Source: Anadara kagoshimensis
Taxonomy: Eukaryota; Mollusca; Bivalvia; Arcoida; Arcidae
Direction: 5' to 3'
Assembly: GCA_021292105.1 (NCBI GenBank)
Contig: CM037870.1
Coordinates: 68,861,260 to 68,925,259 of the forward strand
DNA length: 64,000 nt
The notes beneath the pieces were generated by a model, which did no database searches, was not told the DNA's origin, and saw only the letters and a program-made list of their open reading frames with translations. The position numbers and the translations under genes were made by a program. Positions 1 to 63,645 of this stretch are shown one piece after another; the first letter of the stretch is position 1; every line of letters starts with the position of its first letter.

Positions 1-1452
1 AACACGAGGTGTATCAATCAAGTCTTAGTTTTGATCATAAACATTCTATTATCATTCCAAAAAGCCATCACATTGCAACACTCTTAGTGCGCAAATATCA
101 TCAAAAAGTGAATCATCAAGGCCGCCATTTCACAGAAGGTTCGCTTCGTTCAGCCGGTTTGTGGATTGTTGGATGCAAGAACTTAGTTTCATCAGTTATT
201 AAGGGCTGTGTAAATTGTCGCAAATTTCGTGGTAGTACAGTTACGCAAATAATGTCAGATCTTCCGGAGGATAGACAAACTCCTTCTCCGCCCTTTACTT
301 GTGTAGGAGTCGACACGTTCTGACCATGGACTATTGTGACTAGACGTACACGAGGAGCAGTAATCAATAATAAACGTTGGGCTGTACTATTCACCTGCTT
401 GTCATCTCGAGCTATACACATTGAAGTTGTAGAAAGCTTAAGTTCTGAGGCATTCATTAATGCTTTGCGAAGATTTATCGCCATAAGAGGTCCAGTTAAA
501 CAATTTTGTTCTGATCGAGGGCAAATTTCGTAAGTGCGACAACAGATCTAGGCATCAAGTCAGTCAACGTTGAAGATGGACCAATAAAGAATTTCTTAGA
601 CAGCCACCAAACGACTTGGTTATTTAATGCGCCTCATAGTTCACATATGGGTGGTTCATGGGAACGCATGATAGGGGTGACACGGAGAATATTAGATCAA
701 GTGCTCTCTGATGTTCACGCAAATAACTTGACTCATGATGTGTTAGTTACACTTATGGCAGAGATTGTTGGTATAGGTAATGCTCGTCCACTTGTGCCTT
801 TGTCTAGTGATCCGGCCTTGCCTGAAGTGTTATCACCAGATATGCTTTTAACTCAAACGACAGAACCCATGGTATCGCCTCCTATGGATTCGGTCAACTT
901 AAAGGTTCAATGGCAACAAGTGCAAAAGTTAGCAGACTTATTTTGGTCACGTTGGCGAACAGAATACCTTCAGAATTTACAACACCGACGTAAGTGGCAA
1001 TATCCTGAACGAGATCTAAAGGAAGGAGATATTGTTCTTCTAAAAGATAAACAGTTATCCAGAGGAGAATGGCCAACAGGCATTATCATGAAAACATATC
1101 CGAGTGTAGACGGAAAAATTAGAAAGGTTTTAGTTCGTGTTGTGAAGGACGGAAAAGGCTTAGAAGACGTTCGACCAATTTCTGAAGTTATTCTTCTGGT
1201 ACATCATGCTGACACAGAGTGTTAAATCAAGGTGTTTGATAAGTGTTATATCTGAGTTGGTGCTGAGGTCCTACGGTGCATTACCTACTAGTAATGCCAT
1301 CATAATGTTATCATAATTTGTAGTTTTTCCTTTAGTTCAGTTGTTATTACGACAAGGATTATATGTCGAAATTCAAGAATGATTTATTTATATTATAATT
1401 GTGTATTTTGATATGTCATAGTAGTGATACCAAGGGTATCAGGTGGGGAGTA

Positions 1453-15700: not shown

Positions 15701-16267
15701 CTAATCTATTAATTTTAATGCTTTATTTAAGGTTTTTGGGTCATCGTCAAGTATCAAAACAGTATCATCAGCATATTGATTTATCAAATATTCTGTATCT
15801 TTGATCTTGATGCCATTAATATCGGTGTCGTTTTTTATTGTTGTTCTAAGTACTTCTACTGGGAGAATGAATAGGTATGGGGATAAGGGATCACCCTGTC
15901 TCACTCCTCGTTCAATGTTAAAAAAGGGAGAGCAAAATCCATTATTTAAAATACAACTGTTAGCACTATTATAAAAAGTGTGAAACCATTTATTTATTGA
16001 ATCACCGAAACCAAAAAAACTTAAAGTTCGTTTAATGAAAGACCATTCGAGTGAATCAAATGCTTTTTCGAAATCTAAAAGAAGTAAAATTCCCGAAACA
16101 CCGGGAATCTCTGATTTGTCAATAAGATCTATAACTAATCGGTTACATTCTCCAATAAATGTCCCTTTCATAAAACCAACTTGTGATTCTGATATAAGGT
16201 CATCTAGGACTGATTTAATTCGTTTAGCAATAACAGCTGATGCAATTTTATAGTCTACATTTAACAA
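15701..16267 (-). pseudogene. LINE 3 reverse transcriptase fragment
   Basis: The 188-codon frame carries the main RT blocks in order. These are DYKIASAVIAKRIKSVLDDL, ISESQVGFMKG, LLLDFEKAFDSLEWSF, RGVRQGDPLSPYLFILPVE and NQYADDTVLILDD. The catalytic aspartates in the DFEKAFDS and YADD boxes are intact. The spelling is of the L1/Tx1 clade. Adjacent ORF2 sequence on both sides is out of frame or stopped, so the enzyme is not produced as a whole. Confidence 0.9.
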
Positions 16268-17159
16268 CGATATAGGGCGCCAATTTTAAAGAAAATGGTT
16301 TGGTTTTCCTTCCTTAGGCGAACAAGTTATAACTCCCTGTCTTTGTGTTATTGACAGAAGTTCTTTATCAAAGCCAAAATTTAGAGAATTTACTACAAAT
16401 TCACTAATGTCTTTCCAAAAAACTTGTAGAATTCAACTGTGAACCTATCTAACCCAGGGGATTTTCCATTATTCATATTTTTTAATACTTCAAGACATTT
16501 GCGATATTTAAGGTTACCTTCTAGTGAATTACGTGTGTCTTCGTCTATAAAATTAAAGAAAGGATTTTCAGAATTTAGGAAGTAATCAACATTGTTAAAT
16601 GTAGGATTTTTTTATGAATATAGCGATTTGTAATACCGTTTCTGTTCCTCTAAAATGTCTTTTTGATTTTCGATTTTGGTATCATCTTCTAAAAGAAGAA
16701 ACGGAATAGTTTTTTCAACATAATTTTTTCTAAATTACAGAGGTACTTTGTTCCCTTTTCCCCTTCTACTTTCCATCTAGCTTTGGATCTCATTATTATC
16801 CCCCGAATGTTTTCTTCTGGTAGTGACTTTAATTTATTTTCTAATTCAATAATGATGGTTTCATTTGCGTTTTGCGAGTGATAAAGTGATTTGAGTTTAT
16901 TTTCTAAATCTTTTTCCCCTTTTTTGTTTTTCTCTTTTTGAAAGATGAGTAAGAAACAGTTTTTCCCCTAATCATAAGTTTTATCATTTCCCATAAAAGC
17001 TGATCATTTATATCGTATTTTTCCACCCCATCTGTATCCTTATAACTATACTGTTGTACGGTATCATATATACATGATTTTACTATATTTATATATTCTG
17101 GGTCCGATAATAATAATAAACTATTATTGAATTTCCAAATCCCCTACCCCGTTCTTGTT

Positions 17160-20958: not shown

Positions 20959-21408
20959 TTATAACGCTATTTTATCTCTCAACTCCATAAGTAGTAATCC
21001 AAAATGGTTACACCCCGCGCCATGTTTGCCTGTACCACAAAAATAATGCGGAAGGTTATGTAAAAGTTTTGCATTGCCAGTCCCCAAAAGTTCTTTTCTA
21101 AATTCGGATACTTGTTGGTATTTTAAAATAAAGATTTCTTTTATTACATGTAATTTGATTTTTTGCCATTCATTGGAAACATTTGATTTTCTAAATTTTT
21201 TTGGATAATTTCTTAGCTTCTCTCGCGGATTCAGCCGTTCCAATTTTTCTGCTAAATCTAACTGACCATGAAAACGCGCTTTTTCAAACTGGTAGATATG
21301 TTCGGTACTGGTATACATTTTCTTTTCATATAAAACTTTACAATGGATTATTATGTTTTTTTTATTACAGCTATAGAAATTTGAAAGAAAACATTCTGGT
21401 CCTTTCAC
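20959..21408 (-). CDS. NADAR-domain protein, single exon or partial gene
   Basis: NADAR (YbiA-like, DUF1768) proteins are N-glycosidases thought to act on riboflavin intermediates or ADP-ribosylated bases. The reading frame covers the whole domain. KGPECFLSNFYSC opens it, YTSTEHIYQFEKARFHGQ supplies the conserved glutamate-histidine helix, and WQKIKLHVIKEI follows. LLGTGNAKLLHNLP, FCGTGKHGAGCNHFGLLLME and R near the end complete it. The expected WG of fWGxG reads FCG. The first in-frame codon that could start is GTG at 21,408, with a TAA two codons upstream and no ATG. The segment is thus probably an exon entered by splicing (AG|G at 21,400-21,402) or a 5'-truncated copy. No internal stop is present. 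No linked partner gene is seen. Confidence 0.75.
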   Translation of the reverse strand: MKGPECFLSNFYSCNKKNIIIHCKVLYEKKMYTSTEHIYQFEKARFHGQLDLAEKLERLNPREKLRNYPKKFRKSNVSNEWQKIKLHVIKEIFILKYQQVSEFRKELLGTGNAKLLHNLPHYFCGTGKHGAGCNHFGLLLMELRDKIAL

Positions 21409-22189
21409 GTATTATGAACCTTTTATCATCTGAAAGAGAATGAATAAGTAAATGTAAAAATGAATTACAAGAAATAGAAATTATAATGTATCCAAATGGA
21501 TAACGTGATTCAAATCTTGACCGCGTTTTCCCCTATACTTACTAGTATAATTTAAATATAGAAATTGCTAAAAAGACAATAGAAAAAAATTAATAGATAA
21601 ATATGTAGATAAATAAATAGATAAATAAATGTATACAGAAAAAGGGCCTATCACAGGTGAGCATAACTACCACAATCGATCGAAAATACTCTATCTATTG
21701 GTGTATATAGGTACAAACACTCGGAGCAGTCTATCTAATTTAAAGTAAAGGGGTTAACGAGAGAGAAAAAGCCGGTAGTTTTTCTCTTCGGGACTATATA
21801 TAGTGCATATACTCGATATTGACTCTTAATTCATATGTAGCCAAATCACCCTATTTTTCAAATGGAATATGACTGGCGCCTTGCCAAGTCTACCTTTCTA
21901 ACACCCGATACACACCAGCATGTTGCTTACATATTTTCTAAAAGGTATCTAAGGGGGTAAAATAAATGAGAAATAAAAAATTAAATTTAATGTTAGCTTA
22001 ATAGAGCATACATTCATATTAAACATATTGCCATGTGCTACTTTTGAACCCTTATGAAATGAATTGTTTCCTAAAAATTCAAAAGCACATGGCAAAACTA
22101 TAATGGGTATGAAAAAAGAATAAAGGTTTTTGTTAATCCAAAACACTAAGAAAAAATACAATAAAGTTCATTCCCTCCTTTTTAGTGTA
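21409..22189. other. No gene seen
   Basis: A+T-rich with TAGATAAATA-type simple repeats near 21,590-21,630. No supported coding frame; the short open frames are low-complexity. Confidence 0.55.
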
Positions 22190-25984: not shown

Positions 25985-26620
25985 ACATACGTTAATGAGA
26001 GTGTCATCATGTATTTTCCTGACACGCTAGTTAAATTTACCTGTAGGCGGTCAAAATGCATGTGTACATCAATGACGCGCTACAGTTAAATTTTACTGTA
26101 GACTGTCATAATGCATGTGTACATCAATAACGCGCTACAGTTAAATTGTACTGTAGACTGTCATAATGCATGTGTACATCAATGACACGCTACAGTTAAA
26201 TTTTACTGTAGACTGTCAAAATGCATGTGTACATCAATGACGCGCTACAGTTAAATTTTACTGTAGACTGTCAAAATGCATGTGTACATTAATGACGCGC
26301 TACAGTTAAATTTTACTGTAGACTGTCATAATGCATGTGTACATCAATGACACGCTACAGTTAAATTTTACTGTAGACTGTCATAATGCATGTGTACATC
26401 AATAACGCGCTACAGTTAAATTGTACTGTAGACTGTCAAAATGCATGTGTACATCAACGACGGGCTACAGTTAAATTGTACTGTAGACTGTCATAATGCA
26501 TGTGTACATCAATAACGCGCTACAGTTAAATTGTACTGTAGACTGTCATAATGCACGTGTACATCAATGACGGGCTATTGTAAAGTTACTTTAGAGTGTC
26601 ATGGCTGATATTGGTCATCG
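25985..26620. repeat. 55-bp minisatellite, about ten units, upstream of GT15 copy A
   Basis: Units start TGCATGTGTACATCAATGAC at 26,057 and then every 55 bp to 26,552. Each unit holds CTACAGT...ACTGTAG (7-bp arms, 8-nt loop) and a second dyad between GTCA and TGAC around TGTACA. Edge half-units read GAGAGTGTCATCATG and TTTAGAGTGTCATGG. Confidence 0.95.
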
Positions 26621-26857: not shown

Positions 26858-27846
26858 ATGATGAATCGGTGTCATGTTATTATTGTCATTATTATTATTT
26901 ATGTTTTATTGCAGACAATAACAGGGGAATGTCGACCAAATTTATCCTGCTTTACAATAATTATTATCATATCTATATTATTTATATACAGTAAAAATTT
27001 ATAAATTCAAAAAAAAAAAATCAATAAAAAAAATATATCTATATTATTTATGACTATTTTATGGCGTCTCATAAAAAGTCCAGAAAATCTAATAAAAAGT
27101 TCTGAAAATAAAATCAGAATTGCCATTGGTATTCTAGTGGATTGGGAAAATAAACAGAAGGTCCATAAAATATCGAGAATGATAAGGTCAATTGACTTTT
27201 TAATACTACAGATATACTACTATTCAGTGAAACAAAACCGGCTCCAAACTTCAACAAGAACTTAACATATCATAAAATTCATTACGTTCCAATAAAGTTT
27301 AACTTCCCGCCAGGATTTAATAGCAGTGCAAAATCACCTTATAGAAAACGCACAAAATGGGGTTATATCCATATGTGTAGATTTTGGTTCAAGGATATTT
27401 GGCAATATCCAACCGTACAAAGATATAAGTATTTAATGAGGTTTGACACAGATTCCTGTATGCTTAAGAAAACATTTAAGCTTAGGCTTGACGATAAATA
27501 TAAATATTTATATGGCAAGAGCATGTTCGAATACAGCTATATCGATGATTTGAATAAAACCATTTTTCAATATATATCCAAACATAACATTATTCCAAAA
27601 AATCCGGATTTGTTTAAAATTTATAAGGAAACAAAAGGAAAATTACCAATTTGGTATAACAACGTTGAAATAATTATGCTGTCTTCGGAAGTTCAACAAT
27701 TTATGGAAATGATTGATCATACACATGGGCAGTATAAATACAGATTGGGAGATGCGCCATTGCGTTATGCAACAATAGCGTTATTCACATCACCAGGTGA
27801 GGTTGTATCACTTGGTATGGGTAACAGTTATAGACATCCTTGTTGA
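26858..27846 (+). pseudogene. GT15-type glycosyltransferase, copy A, decayed
   Basis: Same gene as the copy at 51,512-52,468, but broken. A 66-bp gain (50 bp of A-rich DNA plus a 16-bp duplication of ATATCTATATTATTTA at 26,969-26,984 and 27,035-27,050) puts a stop right after the membrane anchor. A one-base loss in the T-run near 27,202 shifts the frame. A 12-bp loss removes the TDTSF-type residues after NNVEI near 27,670. The C-terminal 157 codons (27,373-27,846) remain open and keep YKYLMRFDTD and a variant RLGDAP. The segment between the candidate start (MMNRCH) and the exon is 39 nt and open here, reading VIIVIIIIYVLLQ. Confidence 0.9.
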
Positions 27847-32235: not shown

Positions 32236-32495
32236 TTGAAGAACTTGTTTTTATATTTAACTATATCTCACGAAAGTGTACAACTATCGACGACTTGGAT
32301 TGTGTTAAAAAATAATGCAATATTTCTCAATCTTTTCTTCTATGTATATATATGTGTTTTACAAGATTTACACAACTCTTAAGCATCGCTTCTTTCATGG
32401 ACTTGTTTTACGACTTAAAATATCTCAATTTTAATTTTGTTTAATAACTGTCTGTATATTGGTGTTATTACATATTATACCAGTTTTAATTTTAC

Positions 32496-32541
32496 AGCAC
32501 TAGACGGCTGTTTCGGAATACAATTCCTCATCAGTAGTGTT
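32496..32541 (-). ncRNA. Hammerhead ribozyme, minus strand, unit A
   Basis: On the minus strand it reads CACTA, CTGATGAG, helix II GGAAT-TGT-ATTCC, then GAAAC-AGCC-GTC and TAGTG. Helix I is five perfect pairs then an A/C mismatch. Helix III is the minimal A-U plus C-G closed by a four-base loop. Cleavage is expected after GTC (between 32,503 and 32,502). About 100 bp upstream on that strand match the retrozyme monomer, so this is a single truncated copy. Confidence 0.75.
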
Positions 32542-33075
32542 TGGACCAAAATTATTTTGAAGATGTTGAAAAGCTACCCAAAGGACCAAAATATATTTTA
32601 CCAAACTAAGCCAAGGAAATACTTTGCATGAGGGAGTAAATGATACAACGCGCAATATTTTGACATATCACTTATTACTGCGTGTTTCGTTTCTAATTCG
32701 ACAATATTGTTAAAAAATATGTTAAAAAATGTTAAAAAAAGATGTATAAAAAGGGTTATTTCAGATTCAAATATCGAGATTATATATTATGTACTGGTTA
32801 ATATGATCCATAGTCTAAATAATCGTTTATATCGGCTTAGATTAAGGGTCAAGCGAACAGGTCAATACCGTCAATTATATACAAATTATTATGTTTGTGA
32901 TTGATTTTCAAGGACATAGCAGGCAGCTAAAAGGATTTTAGAAAGTCAACGCTACAACTTGCAACAGCGACTTTACATTTCTATATAATACTTATCCTGG
33001 TATACATGTATAACCACTGTATATAGAACCAATTACTCAAAACGAATTTACGTGTCTTCGATGTACCTTAATTAC

Positions 33076-35879: not shown

Positions 35880-36300
35880 GTATTTTTCTGACGTACTACA
35901 GTTCAATTTACAGGTAGAATGTCAAAATGCATGTGTACATCAAGGACGCGATACAGTTCAATTTTACTGTAGACTGTCAAAATGCATGTGTACATCAAGG
36001 ACGCTATACAGTTAAATTTAACTGTAGACTGTCATTGTGCATGTGTACATCAATGACGCGCTACAGATACATTTCCCTGAAGACTGTCATAATGCATGTA
36101 TACATCAAGGACGCGATACAGTTAAATTTAACTGTAGACTGTCATAATGCATGTGTACATCAATGACGCGCTACAGATACATTTCCCTGAAGACTGTCAT
36201 AATGCATGTGTACATCGATGACACGACGGTTAAATTTTACTGTAGACTGTCATAATGCATGTGTACATCAATGACGGGCTACGACAAAGTTACTTTAGAG
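35880..36300. repeat. 55-bp minisatellite, about seven units, upstream of GT15 copy B
   Basis: Unit starts lie at 35,928, 35,983, 36,038, 36,093, 36,148, 36,203 and 36,257. Two unit variants alternate, one with GATACATTTCCCTGAAGACTG in place of the TTAAATTT segment. Confidence 0.95.
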
Positions 36301-36548: not shown

Positions 36549-37561
36549 ATGATGAATCAGTGCCATGTTATGTATCTTTCATATTGTTAATTTTATTATT
36601 TAATACACTTTTTATTTCTATTGCAGAGAATAACAGGGGAATGTCGACCAAATTTATCCTGCTTTACAATAATCATTATCATATCTACATTATTTATAAC
36701 TTTTTCATGGCGTCTCATAATAATTCCAGAAAATCAAATAAAAAGTTCAGAAAATAAAATTAGAATTGCCATTGGTATTCTAGTGGATTGGAAACATAAA
36801 CTGAAGGTCCGTAAATTATCGAGAATGATAAGGTCAATTGACTTTTTTAATACTACAGATATACTACTATTCAGTGACACAAAACCGGTTCCAAACTTCA
36901 ACAAGAACTTAACACAACATAAAATTCATTACGTTCCAATAAAGTTTAACTTCCCGCCAGGATTTAATAGCAGTGCAAAATCACCTTTTAGTGGGCGGAC
37001 AAAATGGGGTTATATCCATATGTGTAGATTTTGGTTCAAGGATATTTGGCAATATCCAATCGTACAAAGATATAAGTATTTAATGAGGTTCGACACAGAT
37101 TCCTGTATGGTTAAGAAAACATTTAAACTTAGGCTTGACGATAAATATAAATATTTATATGGCAAGAGCATGTTCGAATACAGCTTATCGATGATTTGAA
37201 TAAAACCATTTTTCAATATATATCCAAACATAACATTATTCCAAAAAATCCGGATTTGTTTAAAATTTATAAGGAAACAAAAGGAAAATTACCAATTTGG
37301 TATAACAACGTTGAAATAACTGACACTAGTTTTATGCTGTCTTCGGAAGTTCAACAATTTATGGAAATGATTGATCATACACATGGGCAGTATAAATACA
37401 GATGGGGAGATGCGCCATTGCGTTATGCAACAATGGCGTTATTCACATCACCACGTGAGGTTGTATCACTTGGTATGGGTAACAGTTATAACATCCTGTT
37501 GATGATATATCGTTTTGTGCGGTACTATAATAATTCGAGTGTAATTATTTTTCACATTTGA
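36549..37561 (+). pseudogene. GT15-type glycosyltransferase, copy B, frameshifted
   Basis: It is nearly identical to the intact copy in unit C. Candidate start codon at 36,549 (MMNQCH), 60-nt candidate intron 36,567-36,626, main exon from 36,627. The frame is open through the anchor (FTIIIIISTLFITFSW) and YKYLMRFDTD. It is lost by a one-base deletion near 37,187 (AGCTTATCG where C has GGCTATATCG). A second open piece (37,196-37,561) keeps NNVEITDTSF and RWGDAPLRYATMALF. Small deletions near 37,490 shift it again, replacing the YRHPC end. Because B and C are so similar, inactivation looks recent. Confidence 0.9.
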
Positions 37562-39331
37562 ACAAACTGAATCGGTTGTACAAACCATGATGTACCATTG
37601 GAGTTCATATAAAAAAGAATCATACAAATCTATGCCTAATCGAAATCCGAAAGCAAAGTAAACATTTTGAAACTGGCAAATGAGGTAAAACAAGTGTTCT
37701 TCCGCCAGAGAAGTGAGTCCGGATGCTCATGAAGGGTAATCATCTAACTCACATGCTTGAATAGCTTCAGTTTTTTAGAATATAGATAGATCACGCTCAT
37801 TTATTTCTATTACTGTCTGTGTATTGGTAAAACATTACCATAATGCTCTCCAATTTCTGAAATGGGGCACGGAAAATAGATTTTTTTTAATATGAGGTGC
37901 CTTCTTCATAACTAAAGCTAGATATAGGATATAAATCTTCCAGATGACTGCAGATAATTCTGTGCAGGTCAATGTTCAGATCAATGTTCCGGGTAATTTT
38001 GTACCTTTTCCTTTGTGATAGGTAAGTCCGCGCGTGTTATTATAGGAAATCTAATACCTTAATTGTTAAGAATCAATTGACTATATAGTCAAACATTTAC
38101 CTGTCCGCTAAACCTCTAATTTAAATATTGATTATGCACCAACAAATTTATATATAAAGAACACCGATGTTTATTTCTCATCATCATAGTACCAATGCAT
38201 TGTTTGTATATTAAATGCAATCTTTAAACTACTCATGCATTCTGTGGTTCATTGTATAGGAATATTTGTAATAAAACATCCAGCAAAAAGGTCGAACAAG
38301 AGATTGTATTGTAAATATTTTAGTTATTTTAACCTACATTGTACATTGTCAAATTGACATGTTAGAAGTCAATTCACTCCAGCAGTTTAGTTTAAGATTT
38401 ATTACTTTGATTTAACCGTTAAATTCTAAAACCTCGGAGGTATCCTAAGCATGCGATACATCTTTAAAGAATTTCGATATTATACACTGATGACCACCTT
38501 GATGGTCAATTTGTTTTTAGTTGTTAGTATTATTTATGGACACGGTATTTTTCTTAGCGTATCAGCGTAGCAACCTTAAACTATCACTTTCTGACAACTT
38601 TAACCTACCATCAAGTACAGATCTTAACTACAGGGGATTTTGATCCCGCTCATATACCTCACAATATTGAATTTAAGCTGGTTAAAGATTTAATTTCAAC
38701 AGAAATTGTACTTTTATATTTTAGCATCAATATGTATTGCATTCTTTTTCCTTGATATGTTTTCTGCTTTTGTATCATTGTGCTGTAGAGATTCCTCTCC
38801 ACCTTTGCTGTTGTTTTGACATTTATTCAATCATTATTGGTTCATATTATATAATGGCAGCTTTCTTCCCATTTTTACTTATCTTTTTGTAATTATCCTA
38901 CAATTAATTTTTATATTGTCTAATTTAATACAATTGACAAGTAGAAACACCCCTTATGGCCAAATTTTTACATTTTCAGATTTTGTAAGATTTTACTAGA
39001 ACATTTCGTGCCTTTCTTATGATATATGGCATTTTCTAATTTACAAGCGTAAAATATATGTATTTTGGCCAATAAAAATGGATGTTTGTTGCCATTTTGC
39101 ATTTTTTGCCGCCATAACGTCATGATAACGTCACGTTTGAACAATGTGCCGCATTTCAGCGTTTTGTGATAAAAAGTGATTTACAAAAATTGCAAACTGG
39201 TACTGGATCATTCATTCCTACATCTCTTGACACTTTTCTTATATAATCCATGATTTATGTCAATAAGCGTCTATTTTTCAAGCAAAAACATCGGTATTTT
39301 TGTCGAAGAGACTGCAAGATAACAATTTATT
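37562..39331. other. Unit B non-coding stretch
   Basis: It matches 27,847-29,610 of A and 52,469-54,310 of C. No supported gene. Confidence 0.6.
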
Positions 39332-39636
39332 TTGCCTCGAGTTGAGTGACTTTTTCCTATGATTGTAAAAAAAAACATTAGAAGTGAAAACTTAGTATTA
39401 CCAGATATTACCAGATAACAGTACAAAAAAAATAAGATGACGACATTGTAAAATTGATTGGATAGGGTTTTACGTCTAAATCAAGAATATTTCACTTATA
39501 TCGAGAACTCACCAGCTTTATGTGAAATGGCAGATTTTTTTCTTTGCTCAGGGAAATGTGCAGGGAGGGTCTTCCGTGACATAGGGCATTGGACTTTCTA
39601 GTCACTTCCGAAGAACCTTGTGACTTACATTTTAAA

Positions 39637-39707
39637 AGGCCGAGTGCTAGGCGAAACAGTCACTGCATATTGTCAAACCTTGTCAGAGCCCGCCGGGGTT
39701 CGAATCC
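39637..39707 (+). repeat. tRNA-like Pol III A and B box pair (SINE-like), unit B
   Basis: AGGCCGAGTGC (39,637-39,647) resembles an A box. GGTTCGAATCC (39,697-39,707) is a perfect B box about 50 bp later. GGGCATTGGACTTTCTAGTC at about 39,583-39,602 recalls a tRNA-Ser/Leu arm. No full cloverleaf forms, so a tRNA-derived SINE relic is likelier than a working tRNA gene. The C copy has its boxes at 54,625-54,635 and 54,683-54,693. Confidence 0.4.
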
Positions 39708-40221
39708 ACGACCTCCCGCAAACGGAACGATATTGAGAAATGATTGTATGTGAAAAACAAAGGATGAGAACCGAGATTCTAGGGACCGGTTGTCTTGATG
39801 CGACTTACGAATTGTGGCATCTTTATCGCCTGCGCTCTTGATTGAATCCCACTGAGGCACATTCTAGTGCGAAAAAGATTTTGTTATTTTGCGTTACTGA
39901 AGATGACACCACCACTCCTTACAGAACTGACTGTCTAGTTATAAAAGAAATACTATTAACTACACACGGGGACTGGTTAATCGAGTGTTTTATTTAAAAT
40001 TTGACGAAAAACAGTTTTCTGGGTACAAAATTTTGCCTGATTTTAATCTACATGTAAATGAAGATTAATTAAAAAATATATCAGGATACACATGGCTCCG
40101 AGCCACCTCCTGAAATATTTGTTATGTTATACCGAATCATCAAAACTTAATACCTTATTTTGGTCCTTTGGGTAGCTTTTCAACATCTTCAAAATAATTT
40201 TGGTTTCATAATTTTGGTCCA

Positions 40222-40267
40222 AGCACTACTGATGAGGAATTGTATTCCGAAACGGCCGTCTAGTGCT
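40222..40267 (+). ncRNA. Hammerhead ribozyme 1 (type I), unit B
   Basis: AGCACTA pairs perfectly with TAGTGCT (helix I, 7 bp). CTGATGAG is followed by helix II GGAAT-TGT-ATTCC, then GAAAC, loop GGCC, and GTC with cleavage predicted after 40,260. All core positions are canonical. The minimal helix III is as in other animal type I hammerheads. Confidence 0.9.
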
Positions 40268-40551
40268 GTAAAATTAAAACTGGTATAATATGTAATTTAA
40301 ACCCCTTAGCCGATATCTCTACTGGTGGCTGGTGCACCGAGGATATCAAAAACTCAGTAGGCAATAATTTCGTATTATTGTCAGAAATATACTATAATTA
40401 ACTAAATTTCCTGCAAGTTAAAATTTGAAATTTCTCAAAAACTAAGGTATACTCCCTCATGCAAAGTATTTCCTTAGCTTAATTTGGTAAAATATATTTG
40501 GGTAGCTTTTCAACATCTTCAAAATAATTTTGGTTTCATTATTTTGGTCCA

Positions 40552-40596
40552 AGCACTACTGATGAGGATTGTATTCTGAAACGGCCGTCTAGTGCT
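40552..40596 (+). ncRNA. Hammerhead ribozyme 2 (type I), unit B
   Basis: Same helix I and core. Helix II is weakened by a missing base (GGATTGTATTCT). Cleavage is predicted after 40,589, 329 nt after the first site. Confidence 0.85.
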
Positions 40597-42204
40597 GTAA
40601 AATTAAAACTGGTATAATAAATAAATTTTGAATTTTAGATTCTACTCAAATAAATAAATAAAGTTGACACAAGCTGAAAACTGCTTGAATGTTGAAAGTT
40701 TTGGATATTCGGTATAATAATAACTGTTAAAATGTATCAATCGAAGAAAATAGTGAATAAACTGGTCCCAATTCAAGATGGCAAATTTGAAATTTCTACA
40801 TGTTGATCAATTTGTCAAAAACTTGACAAACTGTTAATTTTACAGGATATCTATCAAGATCATGAATTCATCTGCTGTACCTGTATTGGGCTTAATTCAT
40901 AACTTATATTTTATCATTTTAAAAATGTATTGCAGGTTTGATGGAATTTTATCCAAAATGGGCCGATTTGGTTTGTTTAACACAAATTTCTAAATATTCT
41001 TATACTCTGTTTATAATTTAAAAAAGTATTAGTACAATATTACTAGTATATTTAAATTTTTAGATTTTGGCTCAGACAAATATATGTTTTATTTGCATTT
41101 CTTTGTGCAACTCCATCTTCATTCTATTATATGTTAAAATGATGGGTATTTTCCGCTTTTGTTCTTTGTTTTCAAATCAAGTTTCGATGGTCAACCTTTC
41201 GGAGTTAAAACTTGCTATACATGTATATATAATTGATGTTATACTATAAGCTTAGTTTTCCCTGTAGGAAAAGGGTTAAAATCTGAATAGCTACATGCAT
41301 TACATGTATTTATTTAATTTGTAATATTCTTTTAAATTTGTCTTTTCTACAAATCTGTATCTTCATGTTCTTTTCTCTGAAAACACACTCATTCCTTTAG
41401 GTCAAGCCACTGGTAATATTATTTTGATTACACATATCACCCCCGAGAATTTTAAGTGGACCGTGATGCTAATCAATACTTTATCACTTATCGTATAAAG
41501 ATGAGAAATGAAAACTATGGCTTTTAAATTTACAAATCGGCACATAACTTCTATACATGTATATGTGGTAATGGTATGGGTGCCCTTTTGTCTTTGCTGT
41601 GTTCTTTTTTATGCAATTAACAACCGTGTTCTATGCAAACTGTATAATTTGTGTGCTTCACAACGCTGAATATTAACCGCATTGTACATGTCTTATTAAA
41701 GAAAAATTAAATTGCTAAATTTAGATAATAAGTAGATAATTTAAAAAGCTTGCAATTGAATTCTTGTTAAGTAAACATGTTCTCTTGCCATCAAAAAGAA
41801 ATTGTTTGATGGGTTGAGTTTTATGTATTTTTTCACGAAAAAAATCGATAGCATTTTGACATATCTATTTTGTAGAATATCGTTAAAATGATGTGAACTT
41901 TACAGTTTACAACGGAAAATGATAAATAAAAAACTTTTTGTTCATTTTCCTTACAAGTTGACAATCGATTCTGGTAATGCCGACTTTATTGCTTACTTCG
42001 GTCAACTCAGTTAAAAATGTATCGGTTAAACGGATATACTTAATGCAGTGATAAAGAAGGTAGGATGTCGGCATTGAAAATATCACATTTAAAACAATAA
42101 ACATGCGTGGAATGCACGTTCTAAAGATGTATTCCTTTATTTCATTTTTGCCACGTACCAACTGATCACTACTCAATCGACTCTTAATATTGACAGTTGA
42201 AATA

Positions 42205-46000: not shown

Positions 46001-46253
46001 ACTTGTTTTTATATTTAACTATCTCTCACGAAAGTGTACAACTATCGACGACTTGGATTGTGTTAAAAAATAATGCAATATTTCTCAATCTTTTCTTCTA
46101 TGTAGATATATGTGTTTTACAAGATTTACACAACTCTTAAGCATCGCTTCTTTCAAGGAATTGTTTTACGGTTTAAAATATCTCAATTTTAGTTTTGTTT
46201 ATTAACTGTCTGTATATTGGTGTTATTACATATTATACCAGTTTTAATTTTAC

Positions 46254-46299
46254 AGCACTAGACGGCTGTTTCGAAATACAATTCCTCATCAGTAGTGTT
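46254..46299 (-). ncRNA. Hammerhead ribozyme, minus strand, unit B
   Basis: Core as in the unit A minus copy. Helix II has one change (ATTTC in place of ATTCC) that keeps a G-U pair. Loop III is AGCC. Predicted cleavage lies between 46,261 and 46,260 on the minus strand. Confidence 0.7.
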
Positions 46300-46692
46300 T
46301 GGACCAAAATTATTTTGAAGATGTTGAAAAGCTACACAAAGGACCAAAATATATTTTACCAAACTAAGCCATGGAAATACTTTGCATGAGGGAGTAAATG
46401 ATACAACGCGCAATATTTTGACATATCACTTATTACTGCGTGTTTCGTTTCTAATTCGACAATATTGTTAAAAATATGTCAAAAAATGTTAAAAAAAGAG
46501 GTATAAAAAGGGTTATTTCAGATTCAAATATCGAGATTATATATTATGTACTGGTTAATATGATCCATAGTCTAAATAATCGTTTATATCGGCTTAGATT
46601 AAGGGTCAAGCGAACAGGTCAATACCGTCAATTATATACAAATTATTATTCAAATACATAATAAATGTACATGTGGTAATTGTTATCAAAGG

Positions 46693-50839: not shown

Positions 50840-51260
50840 TGTATTTTTCTGACGTACTACAGTTCAATTTACAGGTAGAATGTCAAAATGCATGTGTACA
50901 TCAAGGACGCGATACAGTTCAATTTTACTGTAGACTGTCAAAATGCATGTGTACATCAAGGACGCTATACAGTTAAATTTATCTGTAGACTGTCATTGTG
51001 CATGTGTACATCAATGACGCGCTACAGATACATTTCCCTGAAGACTGTCATAATGCATGTGTACATCGATGACACGACGGTTAAATTTTACTGTAGACTG
51101 TCATAATGCATGTGTACATCAAGGACGCGATACAGTTAAATTTAACTGTAGACTGTCATAATGCATGTGTACATCAATGACGCGCTACAGATACATTTCC
51201 CTGAAGACTGTCATAATGCATGTGTACATCAATGACGGGCTACGACAAAGTTACTTTAGA
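50840..51260. repeat. 55-bp minisatellite, about seven units, upstream of GT15 copy C
   Basis: Starts at 50,889, then near-regular 54-55-bp steps to about 51,218. It contains the same unit variants as in B but in a different order, indicating unit shuffling. Confidence 0.95.
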
Positions 51261-51511: not shown

Positions 51512-52468
51512 ATGATGAATCAGTGCCATGTTATGTATCTTTCATATTGTTAATTTTATTATTTAATACACTTTTTGTTTCTATTGCAGAGAATAACAGG
51601 GGAATGTCGACCAAATTTATCCTGCTTTACAATAATCATTATCATATCTACATTATTTATAACTTTTTCATGGCGTCTCATAATAATTCCAGAAAATCAA
51701 ATAAAAAGTTCAGAAAATAAAATTAGAATTGCCATTGGTATTCTAGTGGAGTGGAAACATAAACTGAAGGTCAGTAAATTATCGAGAATGATAAGGTCAA
51801 TTGACTTTTTTGATACTACAGATATACTACTATTCAGTGACACAAAACCGGTTCCAAACTTCAACAAGAACTTAACACATCATAAAATTCATTACGTTCC
51901 AATAAAGTTTAACTTCCCGCCAGGATTTAATAGCAGTGCAAAATCACCTTTTAGAGGACGGACAAAATGGGGTTATATCCATATGTGTAGATTTTGGTTC
52001 AAGGATATTTGGCAATATCCAATCGTACAAAGATATAAGTATTTAATGAGGTTCGACACAGATTCCTGTATGGTTAAGAAAACATTTAAACTCAGGCTTG
52101 ACGATCAATATAAATATTTATATGGCAAGAGCATGTTCGAATACGGCTATATCGATGATTTGAATAAAACCATTTTTCAATATATATCCAAACATAACAT
52201 TATTCCAAAAAATCCGGATTTGTTTAAAATTTATAAGGAAACAAAAGGAAAATTACCAATTTGGTATAACAACGTTGAAATAACTGACACTAGTTTTATG
52301 CTGTCTTCGGAAGTTCAACAATTTATGGAAATGATTGATCATACACATGGGCAGTATAAATACAGATGGGGAGATGCGCCATTGCGTTATGCAACAATGG
52401 CGTTATTCACATCACCAGGTGAGGTTGTATCACTTGGTATGGGTAACAGTTATAGACATCCTTGTTGA
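51512..52468 (+). CDS. GT15-family (KRE2/MNT1-like) glycosyltransferase, intact copy C
   Basis: GT15 enzymes are Golgi type II proteins that transfer alpha-1,2-mannose to glycans or glycolipids. The main exon (51,590-52,468, 292 codons) reads ITGECRPNLSC, then the anchor FTIIIIISTLFITFSW (about residues 19-34), then a luminal domain. The domain carries KWGYIHMCRFW, RYKYLMRFDTDS (DxD-like, about 154-165), YLYGKSMFEYGYIDDLNKTI, YNNVEI with the conserved glutamate (about 236), RWGDAPLRYATMALF (about 265-279) and the terminal GNSYRHPC. These follow the family order. No ATG lies in frame at the exon start. MMNQCH at 51,512-51,529, joined over a 60-nt GT-AG gap (51,530-51,589), restores a start, but the donor (GTTATG) is weak. 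The substrate is unknown, and the family name is safer than a specific mannosyltransferase activity. Confidence 0.82.
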
Positions 52469-54310: not shown

Positions 54311-54624
54311 CAATTTATTTTGCCTCGAGTTGAGTGACTTTTTCCTATGATTGTAAAAAAAACTTTAGAAGTGAAAACTTAGTATTACCAGATATTACCA
54401 GATAACAGTACAAAAAAAAATAAGATGACGACATTGTAAAATTGATTGGATAGGGTTTTACGTCTAAATCAAGAATATTTCACTTATATCGAGAACTCAC
54501 CAGCTTTATGTGAAATGGCAGATTTTTTTCTTTGCTCAGGGAAATGTGCAGGGAGGGTCTTCCGTGACATAGGGCATTGGACTTTCTAGTCACTTCCGAA
54601 GAACCTTGTGACTTACATTTTAAA

Positions 54625-54693
54625 AGGCCGAGTGCTAGGCGAAACAGTCACTGCCTATTATCAAGCCTTGTCAGAGAGCCGGGGTTCGAATCC
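54625..54693 (+). repeat. tRNA-like Pol III box pair (SINE-like), unit C
   Basis: A-box-like AGGCCGAGTGC and perfect B box GGTTCGAATCC, as in unit B. Confidence 0.4.
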
Positions 54694-55206
54694 ACGACCT
54701 CCCGCAAACGGAACGATATTGAGAAATGATTGTATGTGAAAAACAAAGGATGAGAACCGAGATTCTAGGGACCGGTTGTCTTGATGCGACTTACGAATTG
54801 TGGCATCTTTTATCGCCTGCGCTCTTGATTGAATCCCACTGAGGCACATTCTAGTGCGAAAAAGATTTTGTTATTTTGCGTTACTGAAGATGACACCACC
54901 ACTCCTTACAGAACTGACCGTCTAGTTATAACAGAAATACTATTAACTACACACGGGGACTGGTTAATCGAGTGTTTTATTTAAAATTTGACGAAAAACA
55001 GTTTTCTGGGTACAAAATTTTGCCTGATTTTAAACTACATGTAAATGAAGATTAATTAAAAAATATATCAGGATCCACATGGCCCGAGCCGCCTCCTGAA
55101 ATATTTGTTATGTTATACCGAATCATCAAAACTTAATACCTTATTTTGGTCCTTTGGGTAGCTTTTCAACATCTTCAAAATAATTTTGGTTTCATATTTT
55201 GGTCCA

Positions 55207-55252
55207 AGCACTACTGATGAGGAATTGTATTCCGAAACGGCCGTCTAGTGCT
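55207..55252 (+). ncRNA. Hammerhead ribozyme 1 (type I), unit C
   Basis: Identical in core and helices to the first unit B ribozyme. Cleavage predicted after 55,245. Confidence 0.9.
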
Positions 55253-55536
55253 GTAAAATTAAAACTGGTATAATATGTAATTTAAACCCCTTAGCCGATA
55301 TCTCTGCTGGTGTCTGGTGCCCCGAGGATATCAAAAACTCAGTAGGCAATAATTTCGTATTATTGTCAGAAATATACTATAATTAACTAAATTTCCTGTA
55401 AGTTAAAATTTGAAATTTCTCAAAAACTAAGGTATACTCCCTCATGCAAAGTATTTCCTTAGCTTAATTTGGTAAAATATATTTGGGTAGCTTTTCAACA
55501 TCTTCAAAATAATTTTGGTTTCATTATTTTGGTCCA

Positions 55537-55582
55537 AGCATTACTGATGAGGAATTGTATTCTGAAACGGCCGTCTAGTGCT
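55537..55582 (+). ncRNA. Hammerhead ribozyme 2 (type I), unit C
   Basis: AGCATTA replaces AGCACTA, giving a T-G wobble in helix I. Helix II keeps full length (GGAAT-TGT-ATTCT). Cleavage predicted after 55,575. Confidence 0.85.
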
Positions 55583-57193
55583 GTAAAATTAAAACTGGTA
55601 TAATAAATAAATTTTGAATTTTAGATTCTACTCAAATAAATAAATAAAGTCGACACAGGCTGAAAACTGCTTGAATGTTGAAAGTTTTGGATATTCGGTA
55701 TAATAATAACTGTTAAATATGTATCAATCGAAGAAAATAGTGAATAAACTGGTCCCAATTCAAGATGGCAAATTTGAAATTTCTACATTTTGATCAATTT
55801 GTCAAAAACTTGACAAACTGTTAATTTTACAGGATATCTATCCAAGATCATGAATTCATCTGCTGTACCTGTATTGGGCTTAATTCATAACTTATATTTT
55901 ATCATTTTAAAAATGTATTGCAGGTTTGATGGAATTTTATCCAAAATGGGCCGATTTGGTTTGTTTAACACAAATTTCTAAATATTCTTATACTCTGTCT
56001 TATAATTTAAAAAAGTATTAGTACAATATTACTAGTATATTTAAATTTTTAGATTTTGGCTCAGACAAATATATGTTTTATTTGCATTTCTTTGTGCAAC
56101 TCCATCTTCATTCTATTATATGTTAAAATGATGGGTATTTTCCGCTTTTGTTATTTGTTTTCAAATCAAGTTTCGATGGTCAACCTTTCGGAGTTAAAAC
56201 TTGCTATACATGTATTATATAATTGATGTTATACTATAAGCTTAGTTTTCCCTGTAGGAAAAGGGTTAAAATCTGAATAGCTACATGCATTACATGTATT
56301 TATTTAATTTGTATATTCTTTTAAATTTGTCTTTTCTACAAATCTGTATCTTCATGTTCTTTTCTCTGAAAACACACTCATTCCTTTAGGTCAAGCCACT
56401 GGTAATATTATTTTGATTACACATATCACCCCCGTGAATTTTAAGTGGACCGTGATGCTAATCAATACTTTATCACTTATCGTATAAAGATGAGAAATGA
56501 AAACTATGGCTTTTAAATTTACAAATCGGCACATAACTTCTATACATGTATATGTGGTAATGGTATGTGGGTGCCCTTTTGTCTTTGCTGTGTTCTTTTT
56601 TATGCAATTAACAACCGTGTTCTATGCAAACTGTATAATTTGTGTGCTTCACAACGCTGAATATTAACCGCATTGTACATGTCTTATTAAAGAAAAATTA
56701 AATTGCTAAATTTAGATAATAAGTAGATAATTTAAAAAGCTTGCAATTGAATTCTTGTTAAGTAAACATGTTCTCTTGCCATCAAAAAGAAATTGTTTGA
56801 TGGGTTGAGTTTTATGTATTTTTTCACGAAAAAAATCAATAGCATTTTGACATATCTATTTTGTAGAATATCGTTAAAATGATGTGAACTTTACAGTTTA
56901 CAACGGAAAATGATAAATAAAAAACTTTTTGTTCATTTTCCTTACAAGTTGACAATCGATTCTGGTAATGCCGACTTTATTGCTTACTTCGGTCAACTCA
57001 GTTAAAAATGTATCGGTTAAACGGATATACTTAATGCAGTGATAAAGAAGGTAGGATGTCGGCATTGAAAATATCAAATTTAAAACAATAAACATGCGTG
57101 GAATGCACGTTCTAAAGATGTATTCCTTAATTTCATTTTTGCCACGTACCAACTGATCACTACTCAATCGACTCTTAATATTGACAGTTGAAA

Positions 57194-59985: not shown

Positions 59986-60237
59986 CTTGTTTTTATATTT
60001 AACTATCTCTCACGAAAGTGTACAACTATCGACGACTTGGATTGTGTTAAAAAATAATGCAATATTTCTCAATCTTTTCTTCTATGTAGATATATGTGTT
60101 TTACAAGATTTACACAACTCTTAAGCATCGCTTCTTTCAAGGACTTGTTTTACGACTTAAAATATCTCAATTTTAGTTTTGTTTATTAACTGTCTGTATA
60201 TTGGTGTTATTACATATTATACCAGTTTTAATTTTAC

Positions 60238-60283
60238 AGCACTAGACGACTGTTTCGGAATACAATTCCTCATCAGTAGTGTT
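60238..60283 (-). ncRNA. Hammerhead ribozyme, minus strand, unit C
   Basis: Same core as the A and B minus copies, with loop III AGTC. The cleavage box GTC and GAAAC are intact. Confidence 0.7.
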
Positions 60284-60677
60284 TGGACCAAAATTATTTT
60301 GAAGATGTTGAAAAGCTACACAAAGGACCAAAATATATTTTACCAAACTAAGCCAAGGAAATACTTTGCATGAGGGAGTAAATAATACAACGCGCAATAT
60401 TTTGACATATCACTTATTACTGCGTGTTTCGTTTCTAATTCGACAATATTGTTAAAAAATATGTTAAAAAATGTTAAAAAAAGAGGTATAAAAAGGGTTA
60501 TTTCAGATTCAAATATCGAGATTATATATTATGTACTGGTTAATATGATCCATAGTCTAAATAATCGTTTATATCGGCTTAGATTAAGGGTCAAGCGAAC
60601 AGGTCAATACCGTCAATTATATACAAATTATTATTCAAATACATAATAAATGTACATGTGGTAATTGTTATCAAAGG

Positions 60678-63497: not shown

Positions 63498-63645
63498 CTG
63501 ACGTACTACAGTTCAATTTACAGGCAGGATGTCAAAATGCATGTGTACATCAATGACGCGCTACAGTTCAATTGTACTGTAGACTGTCAAAATGCATGTG
63601 TACATCAAGGACGGGCTACGACAAAGTTAATTTAGAGTGTCTTGA
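63498..63645. repeat. 55-bp minisatellite, two units, upstream of GT15 copy D
   Basis: Unit starts at 63,538 and 63,593 between the same edge half-units as in A-C. This is the shortest array in the window. Confidence 0.9.

What the first reader, a model, noticed from the sequence alone, without database searches (positions are those of the whole stretch)
40150..40620. Tandem hammerhead ribozymes 329 nt apart in unit B: a retrozyme-like element
Two plus-strand motifs have every core position of a type I hammerhead, with a perfect 7-bp helix I and minimal helix III. Cleavage at both predicted sites would release a 329-nt RNA with ends suited to circularisation. No ORF is present. The layout agrees with the animal retrozymes described from metazoan transcriptomes. 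The precise family appears to lie within a tandemly amplified gene cluster, which is unusual.
Basis: partly seen in the sequence, partly recalled or inferred. Interest (0 to 1): 0.85.

Follow-up and report, generated by a model that had tools for sequence, protein, structure and literature searches.

The report
Hammerhead retrozyme with fixed Penelope-like tail
The two self-cutting RNA motifs are real and belong to a non-coding jumping element present about ten thousand times in this animal genome, and the way its copies end suggests it is copied by the machinery of a second, self-sufficient kind of jumping gene that also carries such a ribozyme.

Summary
Confirmed and extended. Window 40156-40619 holds two type I hammerhead motifs cutting after 40260 and 40589, 329 nt apart. 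Rfam Hammerhead_1 finds the first at 28.1 bits (E=6.7e-5, gathering score 34) and does not list the second, whose helix II is decayed. The element is not special to the gene cluster: the motif has 10,844 near-matches in the 1.115-Gb genome. Units are about 339 bp, often tandem. The local copy is an old insertion carried along by duplication of the cluster; three paralogous sites hold three full units, three (B and C included) hold one. New here: insertions share a 3' end about 37 nt past the cleavage site (83 of 93; genome-wide counts fall from 13,073 to 2,092-2,351 across that point) while 5' ends scatter, the mark of reverse transcription from one start. Penelope-like elements here end about 33-71 nt past their own hammerhead-like motifs, and a published Penelope-like enzyme starts copying inside its RNA (PMC11167929). 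Best reading: a metazoan non-LTR retrozyme, probably mobilised by Penelope-like machinery. No RNA data; no target-site duplication found; no partner with a matching tail found.

The parts
40156..40619 (+). Retrozyme insertion in unit B: 5'-truncated partial unit (about nt 235-339), one full unit of 329 nt, and about 30 nt of the 3' tail
   Evidence: borders from comparison with the family majority sequence
40222..40267 (+). Type I hammerhead 1 (helix I 40222-40228/40261-40267, core from 40229, predicted cut after 40260)
   Evidence: RF00163 28.1 bits, E=6.7e-5
40552..40596 (+). Type I hammerhead 2 (core from 40559, predicted cut after 40589); helix II decayed
   Evidence: not listed for RF00163; fold
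40261..40589 (+). 329-nt unit between the two predicted cuts; the family unit is 339 nt
40590..40619 (+). 3' tail after the last cleavage site; matches the first 30 nt of the unit; in most copies the tail is about 37 nt
55142..55605 (+). The same insertion in unit C (duplicate of the locus)
55207..55252 (+). Type I hammerhead, unit C first copy (cut after 55245)
   Evidence: RF00163 28.1 bits
55537..55582 (+). Type I hammerhead, unit C second copy (cut after 55575); not listed for RF00163, though it still folds with helices I and II
32467..32638 (-). Second, independent retrozyme insertion (172 bp, starts at unit nt 190, ends 36 nt after the cut at 32503), unit A
46225..46396 (-). Same second insertion in unit B (cut 46261)
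60209..60380 (-). Same second insertion in unit C (cut 60245)

Best explanation
The locus is an old genomic copy of a non-autonomous, non-LTR retrozyme. Inferred cycle: units are transcribed; the hammerhead cuts between units and monomers are closed into circles (steps published for mussel and coral retrozymes, not shown here). A reverse transcriptase supplied in trans, most likely of the Penelope-like class, binds the RNA and starts cDNA synthesis at one internal site about 37 nt downstream of the ribozyme cleavage site, primed at an AT-rich break. It copies back through the uncut ribozyme and falls off at variable points, giving mostly less-than-unit inserts and sometimes several units in tandem. 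Shown here: a shared 3' end, scattered 5' ends, retrozyme sequence continuous across the cleavage site in nearly all tail-anchored loci, near-identical units within most young arrays, and Penelope-like elements of the same genome ending a short way past hammerhead-like motifs. Inferred: circular template, the Penelope-like enzyme, target priming. The copy in units B and C entered before the gene cluster was duplicated and appears to have shrunk from three units to one.
For: Genome-wide counts of near-matches (up to 3 mismatches; control with the pattern read backwards 0 in each): unit nt 1-37, 13,073; nt 20-56 across the proposed end, 2,092; nt 38-74, 2,351; nt 190-226, 7,137; hammerhead 42-mer, 10,844: a cliff after nt 37 and a rise towards the ribozyme. 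In fetched loci 83 of 93 distinct insertions end at nt 29-42, 37 of them at nt 37. 82 visible 5' ends spread from nt 1 to 322. Of 60 loci chosen by an exact nt 38-74 match, 57 have a visible 5' end, none exactly at the cleavage site. In 40 of 40 tail-anchored loci retrozyme sequence lies upstream of the tail; in 38 it is the ribozyme end of the unit, in two (L080, L084, duplicates) nt 253-339 are missing. Units within 8 arrays (two of them duplicates of each other) are 97.9-100% identical, between arrays median 95.0%; one array carries the same loop variant in 4 of 4 units. Penelope-like loci: 50 GIY-YIG matches (not every one need be Penelope-like); one locus has RVT_1 and GIY-YIG in a 762-aa frame. 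Hammerhead-like motifs lie 3' of the ORF in 9 of the first 12 GIY-YIG loci and in both copies of L173, in four families; copies stop matching 64-71, 33, 35-44 and 46 nt after the predicted cut. In vitro a Penelope-like enzyme initiates inside its RNA, which explains its genomic tail (PMC11167929).
Against: No target-site duplication: similarity of the two flanks 5.06 against 4.99 for shuffled pairs, 82 insertions. The retrozyme tail is not shared in sequence with the four Penelope-like families examined (by eye), and several of their copies run into TA repeats whereas retrozyme flanks are only AT-rich. Rfam at E<=1 did not recognise the motifs of L168, L163, L170 and L173; family 1 has a helix I of only 3 bp; three of the first 12 GIY-YIG loci (L161, L162, L165) showed no such motif for the GIY-YIG element. 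In family 3, copies lying in TA repeats match for 66-74 nt. In the Anolis element initiation lies 111-118 nt into the ORF, that is about 85-92 nt past the ribozyme cut, its tail is the stretch between two start sites, and ribozyme mutants insert normally (PMC11167929). Three distinct insertions start exactly at the cleavage site (L088; C14:58.77 Mb and C19:27.57 Mb), as a cleaved linear template would give. In a folded two-unit RNA the ribozyme's helix I is unlikely (probability about 0.26 and 0.11). Three old arrays on C14 have units only 88-96% alike, and over all arrays 62.5% of 24 within-array pairs exceed the 95th percentile of between-array pairs. No transcript data. A linear multimer as template is not excluded.
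Confidence: 0.7

Rival explanations
1. A LINE-type reverse transcriptase copies a linear retrozyme transcript whose 3' end is at nt 37; the hammerheads only process the precursor.
For: A fixed 3' end with 5' truncation is also the LINE/SINE signature; published Nematostella repeats have 15-bp target duplications like LINEs (PMC4918200, passages); the base after the end is A in 35 of 43 (T excluded by construction) and the last four left-flank bases are T in 38-40 of 82.
Against: No poly(A) or simple-repeat tail visible in the flanks printed, no target duplication; in 40 of 40 tail-anchored loci the sequence upstream of the tail is retrozyme, so no sign of a LINE sharing this 3' end; Penelope-like elements here share the hammerhead-plus-short-tail plan.
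Confidence: 0.2
2. An ordinary satellite DNA spread by recombination, with a hammerhead left over from an earlier retroelement.
For: Tandem arrays, one of at least 13 units at C3:9334963-9339059; the C14 arrays differ in unit number between duplicated segments.
Against: Most tails end after nt 37 (2,092-2,351 matches continue past it against 13,073 tails); most sampled insertions are short and dispersed (55 of 82 under 370 bp); recombination alone gives no preferred end point.
Confidence: 0.07
3. The two hammerheads in the window are chance motifs or fossils without any retroelement.
For: The second motif is decayed.
Against: 0 hits in 100 shuffles; 10,844 genomic near-matches with a backward control of 0.
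Confidence: 0.01

Closest known systems
Metazoan non-LTR retrozymes (Cervera and de la Pena 2020, PMC7229834), the mussel retrozyme in particular
   Same: Type I hammerhead, tandem units of a few hundred bp, low GC, no ORF, thousands of copies (mussel about 5,000 hammerheads, repeats of 350-390 bp).
   Different: Unit 339 bp here; a 3' end about 37 nt past the cut and scattered 5' ends, not reported in the abstract, sections and passages of that paper that I saw; no target duplication found here. Sequences were not compared because the mussel sequence is not in the text seen.
Penelope-like elements with hammerheads (Poseidon of Anolis, PMC11167929; families found in this genome)
   Same: Minimal-helix-III type I hammerhead or hammerhead-like motif; genomic copies here end a short way 3' of it.
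   Different: They encode RT and GIY-YIG; the retrozyme encodes nothing. Tail sequence not shared; several copies here lie in TA repeats. In Anolis the start site is about 85-92 nt past the cut.
Plant LTR retrozymes (PMC4918200, PMC7761336, passages)
   Same: Non-coding, hammerheads in repeats, circular RNA intermediate.
   Different: Type III hammerheads, LTRs with PBS and PPT, 4-bp target duplications, hammerheads 600-1000 bp apart. Here type I, 339-bp units, no target duplication found; PBS/PPT were not searched for.

Membership tests
Metazoan non-LTR retrozyme | Type I hammerhead with intact core | tested here: met
   Descriptor; RF00163 28.1 bits, E 6.7e-5 for the first motif
Metazoan non-LTR retrozyme | Tandem units of about 150-450 bp, in high copy | tested here: met
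   339-bp units in arrays, one of at least 13; 10,844 near-matches
Metazoan non-LTR retrozyme | Low GC and no ORF | tested here: met
   34.5% GC, longest open frame 49 aa in the tripled unit
Metazoan non-LTR retrozyme | Absence of LTR, PBS and PPT | not tested
   No search for PBS or PPT was made
Metazoan non-LTR retrozyme | Target-site duplication longer than 4 bp where present | tested here: not met
   No excess flank similarity: 5.06 vs 4.99 shuffled, 82 insertions; weak excess in the smaller first set of 49, 4.04 vs 3.74, largest shuffle 4.06. The published definition says 'when present', so this does not exclude membership
Metazoan non-LTR retrozyme | Self-cleavage; linear and circular RNAs of about 170-400 nt | not testable with these tools
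   No transcript data or bench work
Rfam RF00163 Hammerhead_1 | Score at or above the gathering threshold (34 bits) | tested here: not met
   28.1 bits for the first motif of units B and C and for three of four identical units of L039
Penelope-like element | RT and GIY-YIG ORF | tested here: not met
   No ORF in the element; it can only be a passenger
Penelope-like element | Genomic copies end a short distance 3' of the hammerhead (tail) | tested here: met
   About 37 nt in the retrozyme; 33-71 nt in four families here, longer where TA repeats blur the end. Internal initiation itself was not testable

The most novel reading that the evidence does not exclude
Animal retrozymes are mobilised by Penelope-like machinery that starts reverse transcription inside the closed retrozyme circle at one fixed point just past the ribozyme, so that the ribozyme-plus-tail module is the common recognition or initiation cassette of both element classes. 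This would answer who copies retrozymes and why both carry type I hammerheads.
Probability: 0.5. Interest if true: 0.75.

Novelty: new member of a known kind. Interest (0 to 1): 0.55.

Why it matters
The enzyme that mobilises animal retrozymes is unknown; the papers I saw name LINEs or Penelope-like elements only as candidates (PMC7229834, PMC7761336, PMC11722881). A 3' end at a set distance from the ribozyme, visible in genome-wide counts of about ten thousand copies, predicts where reverse transcription starts and links it to the internal initiation measured for a Penelope-like enzyme in 2024. It also shows that the copied RNA was continuous across the cleavage site, which bears on what the ribozyme is for.

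Tried and rejected
A pile-up of 5' ends at the cleavage site (template = cleaved linear RNA) was suggested by loci picked for full length but not seen in the set chosen by nt 38-74: 0 of 57. Target-site duplications: a weak signal in 49 pairs was not upheld in 82. Exact search of viral contigs with a 25-nt motif: 0. Rfam's JPX_2 match at the second motif was taken as chance likeness to the hammerhead core. Species identity was not established; that the host is probably a mollusc is a recalled impression from no call. Literature: searches. I opened five of the papers in part (PMC7229834, PMC11167929, PMC7761336, PMC4918200, PMC11722881) and saw no report of a fixed 3' end for animal retrozymes in what I read; the others I saw as listings only. 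The 2014 and 2017 papers on Penelope hammerheads are not held, so a report there is possible.

Full report
What is there. The two motifs of the finding are real. A strict descriptor finds seven type I hammerheads in the window and none in 100 dinucleotide-preserving shuffles. Four are on the plus strand, as pairs in units B (cuts after 40260 and 40589) and C (55245 and 55575), and three on the minus strand (cuts at 32503, 46261, 60245). Rfam's Hammerhead_1 model finds the first motif of each pair at 28.1 bits, E about 7e-5, under its 34-bit gathering score, and lists neither second motif; it also skipped one of four identical units in L039, so its silence is weak evidence. The second motif in B has lost a base in helix II and does not fold as a hammerhead on its own; the second motif in C still does. 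The element has no sizeable open frame.

The family. The 42-nt hammerhead has 10,844 near-matches (up to three mismatches) in the 1.115-Gb genome holding the window; the same pattern read backwards has 0. A DNA search with the 329-nt unit listed 119 matches after scoring 40 of 2545 candidates; the common unit is about 339 bp, often in head-to-tail arrays, the longest seen having at least 13 units. So the idea that the family sits in the amplified gene cluster is wrong: two insertions with different flanks happen to lie there and were copied with it.

History of the local copy. Sites with the same left and right flanks occur at six places on contig C14: three hold three full units (1147-1152 bp), three, including units B and C, hold one (464 bp). 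The third units of two three-unit sites are 99.7% identical to each other although units within a site are only 88-96% alike, so the three-unit state is old; contraction in B and C is the likely direction, not proven. The window unit differs from the family majority by 9 mismatches and 10 gap positions.

Fixed 3' end. I chained matches in the window and 100 fetched loci into 111 insertions; dropping 15 with a repeated right flank and 3 at the edge of a stretch leaves 93. Of these 83 end at unit nt 29-42 counted from the cleavage site, 37 exactly at nt 37; the other ten end elsewhere (nt 189-339). Forty of the loci were chosen by an exact match to nt 1-37, which forces them to reach nt 37 but not to stop there. 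Counts over the whole genome do not depend on that choice: nt 1-37 13,073, nt 20-56 2,092, nt 38-74 2,351, nt 190-226 7,137, hammerhead 42-mer 10,844. The patterns differ in length and in how variable their positions are, so single values are approximate, but a five- to sixfold fall at nt 37 followed by a climb towards the ribozyme is clear. 5' ends are spread over the unit: 82 ends from nt 1 to 322, lengths 71 to 1704 bp, 55 shorter than 370 bp, 6 of 370-385 and 21 longer. In 60 further loci chosen by an exact nt 38-74 match, 57 have a visible 5' end; they scatter from 247 nt before to 38 nt after the cleavage site and none is exactly at it; five pairs of these share flanks and are duplicates. 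Three insertions elsewhere do begin exactly there (L088; C14:58.77 Mb and C19:27.57 Mb).

Meaning. A shared 3' end with scattered 5' ends is what reverse transcription from a fixed start, with early drop-off, leaves behind. The start lies downstream of the cleavage site, and in 40 of 40 tail-anchored loci retrozyme sequence lies upstream of the tail; in 38 it is the ribozyme end of the unit, in two (L080 and L084, duplicates of each other) nt 253-339 are missing. So the copied RNA was continuous across the cleavage site: a circle or an uncut multimer. Units within 8 arrays (two of them duplicates) are 97.9-100% alike against a between-array median of 95.0%; three old C14 arrays are at 88-96%. 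One array shares a private loop variant in 4 of 4 units. This fits repeated passage over one circular template but also fits homogeneous multimers. The closed 339-nt RNA is predicted to be strongly self-paired (-64 kcal/mol), and in a linear two-unit RNA helix II of the ribozyme is likely (0.7-0.98 per pair) but helix I is not (about 0.26 and 0.11), a point against easy self-cleavage.

The Penelope link. The genome holds Penelope-like elements: 50 GIY-YIG matches (a lower bound; not all need be Penelope-like), one locus with RVT_1 and GIY-YIG in a 762-aa frame. Beyond the GIY-YIG frame lie hammerhead-like motifs with very short helix III in 9 of the first 12 loci and in both copies of L173, of four sorts (the assignment of the cut in the CTGAAGA types is mine). 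L161, L162 and L165 show none for that element. Copies stop matching 64-71 nt (family 1), 33 nt (family 2), 35-44 nt (family 3 against L164; 66-74 between copies that run into TA repeats) and 46 nt (family 4) after the predicted cut. Of 8 further short stretches, 6 have the intact CTGAAGA core, L174 has it with one change and L180 lacks it. The retrozyme's 37 nt falls in this range. Rfam at E<=1 did not recognise the motifs in L168, L163, L170 or L173. For the Anolis Penelope-like protein, initiation inside the RNA, not at its 3' end, explains the genomic tail of 30-40 bp, AT-rich sites are cut, and ribozyme mutants still insert; there the start is 111-118 nt into the ORF, about 85-92 nt past the ribozyme cut, and the tail is the stretch between two start sites (PMC11167929, abstract and parts 1-2 of 4 of the text read; the paper does not mention retrozymes). 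Reviews name Penelope-like elements or LINEs as candidates only (PMC7761336 and PMC11722881, passages; PMC7229834, abstract, three sections and passages).

Results against. No target-site duplication in 82 insertions (5.06 vs 4.99). The retrozyme's tail letters are not those of the four families seen, and several of their copies run into TA repeats while the retrozyme's flanks are only AT-rich (by eye). No family with a closely matching hammerhead was found, but only part of the GIY-YIG loci could be read. So the class of enzyme is inferred from architecture, not from a matched partner.

Verdict. Confirmed element, known kind (metazoan non-LTR retrozyme), ordinary placement, with one result that I did not meet in print in the searches and the five papers read in part: the 37-nt tail and what it says about mobilisation.

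Noticed in passing
window 27196-27846, 36591-37561, 51554-52468: The tandem gene of the cluster: the 51554-52468 frame matches Glyco_transf_15 (glycolipid 2-alpha-mannosyltransferase), E 4.7e-9; similar frames lie in the other units, unit B's being split over two frames.
   Followed up: no
window 39325-41080 and 54313-56069: About 1.75 kb holding the retrozyme is present in units B and C but missing from unit A; the rest of this segment is unexplained.
   Followed up: partly
window 26029-26602, 35897-36282, 50858-51237, 63499-63619: A 55-bp tandem repeat recurs upstream of the gene units.
   Followed up: no
window 515-1222, 15704-16285, 20962-21411: A DUF5641 match (recalled as typical of BEL/Pao elements), an RVT_1 fragment, and a NADAR-domain frame.
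   Followed up: no
L173, L167/L168, L170/L171: Penelope-like elements occur as close inverted pairs and several end in long TA repeats.
   Followed up: partly
G000:C22:287804-288031 (L161): The best GIY-YIG match lies in a frame that looks like bacterial UvrC (recalled, not tested); C22 may be a bacterial contig in the assembly.
   Followed up: no
C2 about 13.97/14.29, 14.60/14.85, 39.85/40.51, 61.37/62.13 and 61.72/62.56 Mb (L126-L129, L141/L143, L154-L158): Five pairs of retrozyme insertions with identical flanks mark duplicated segments on contig C2.
   Followed up: no
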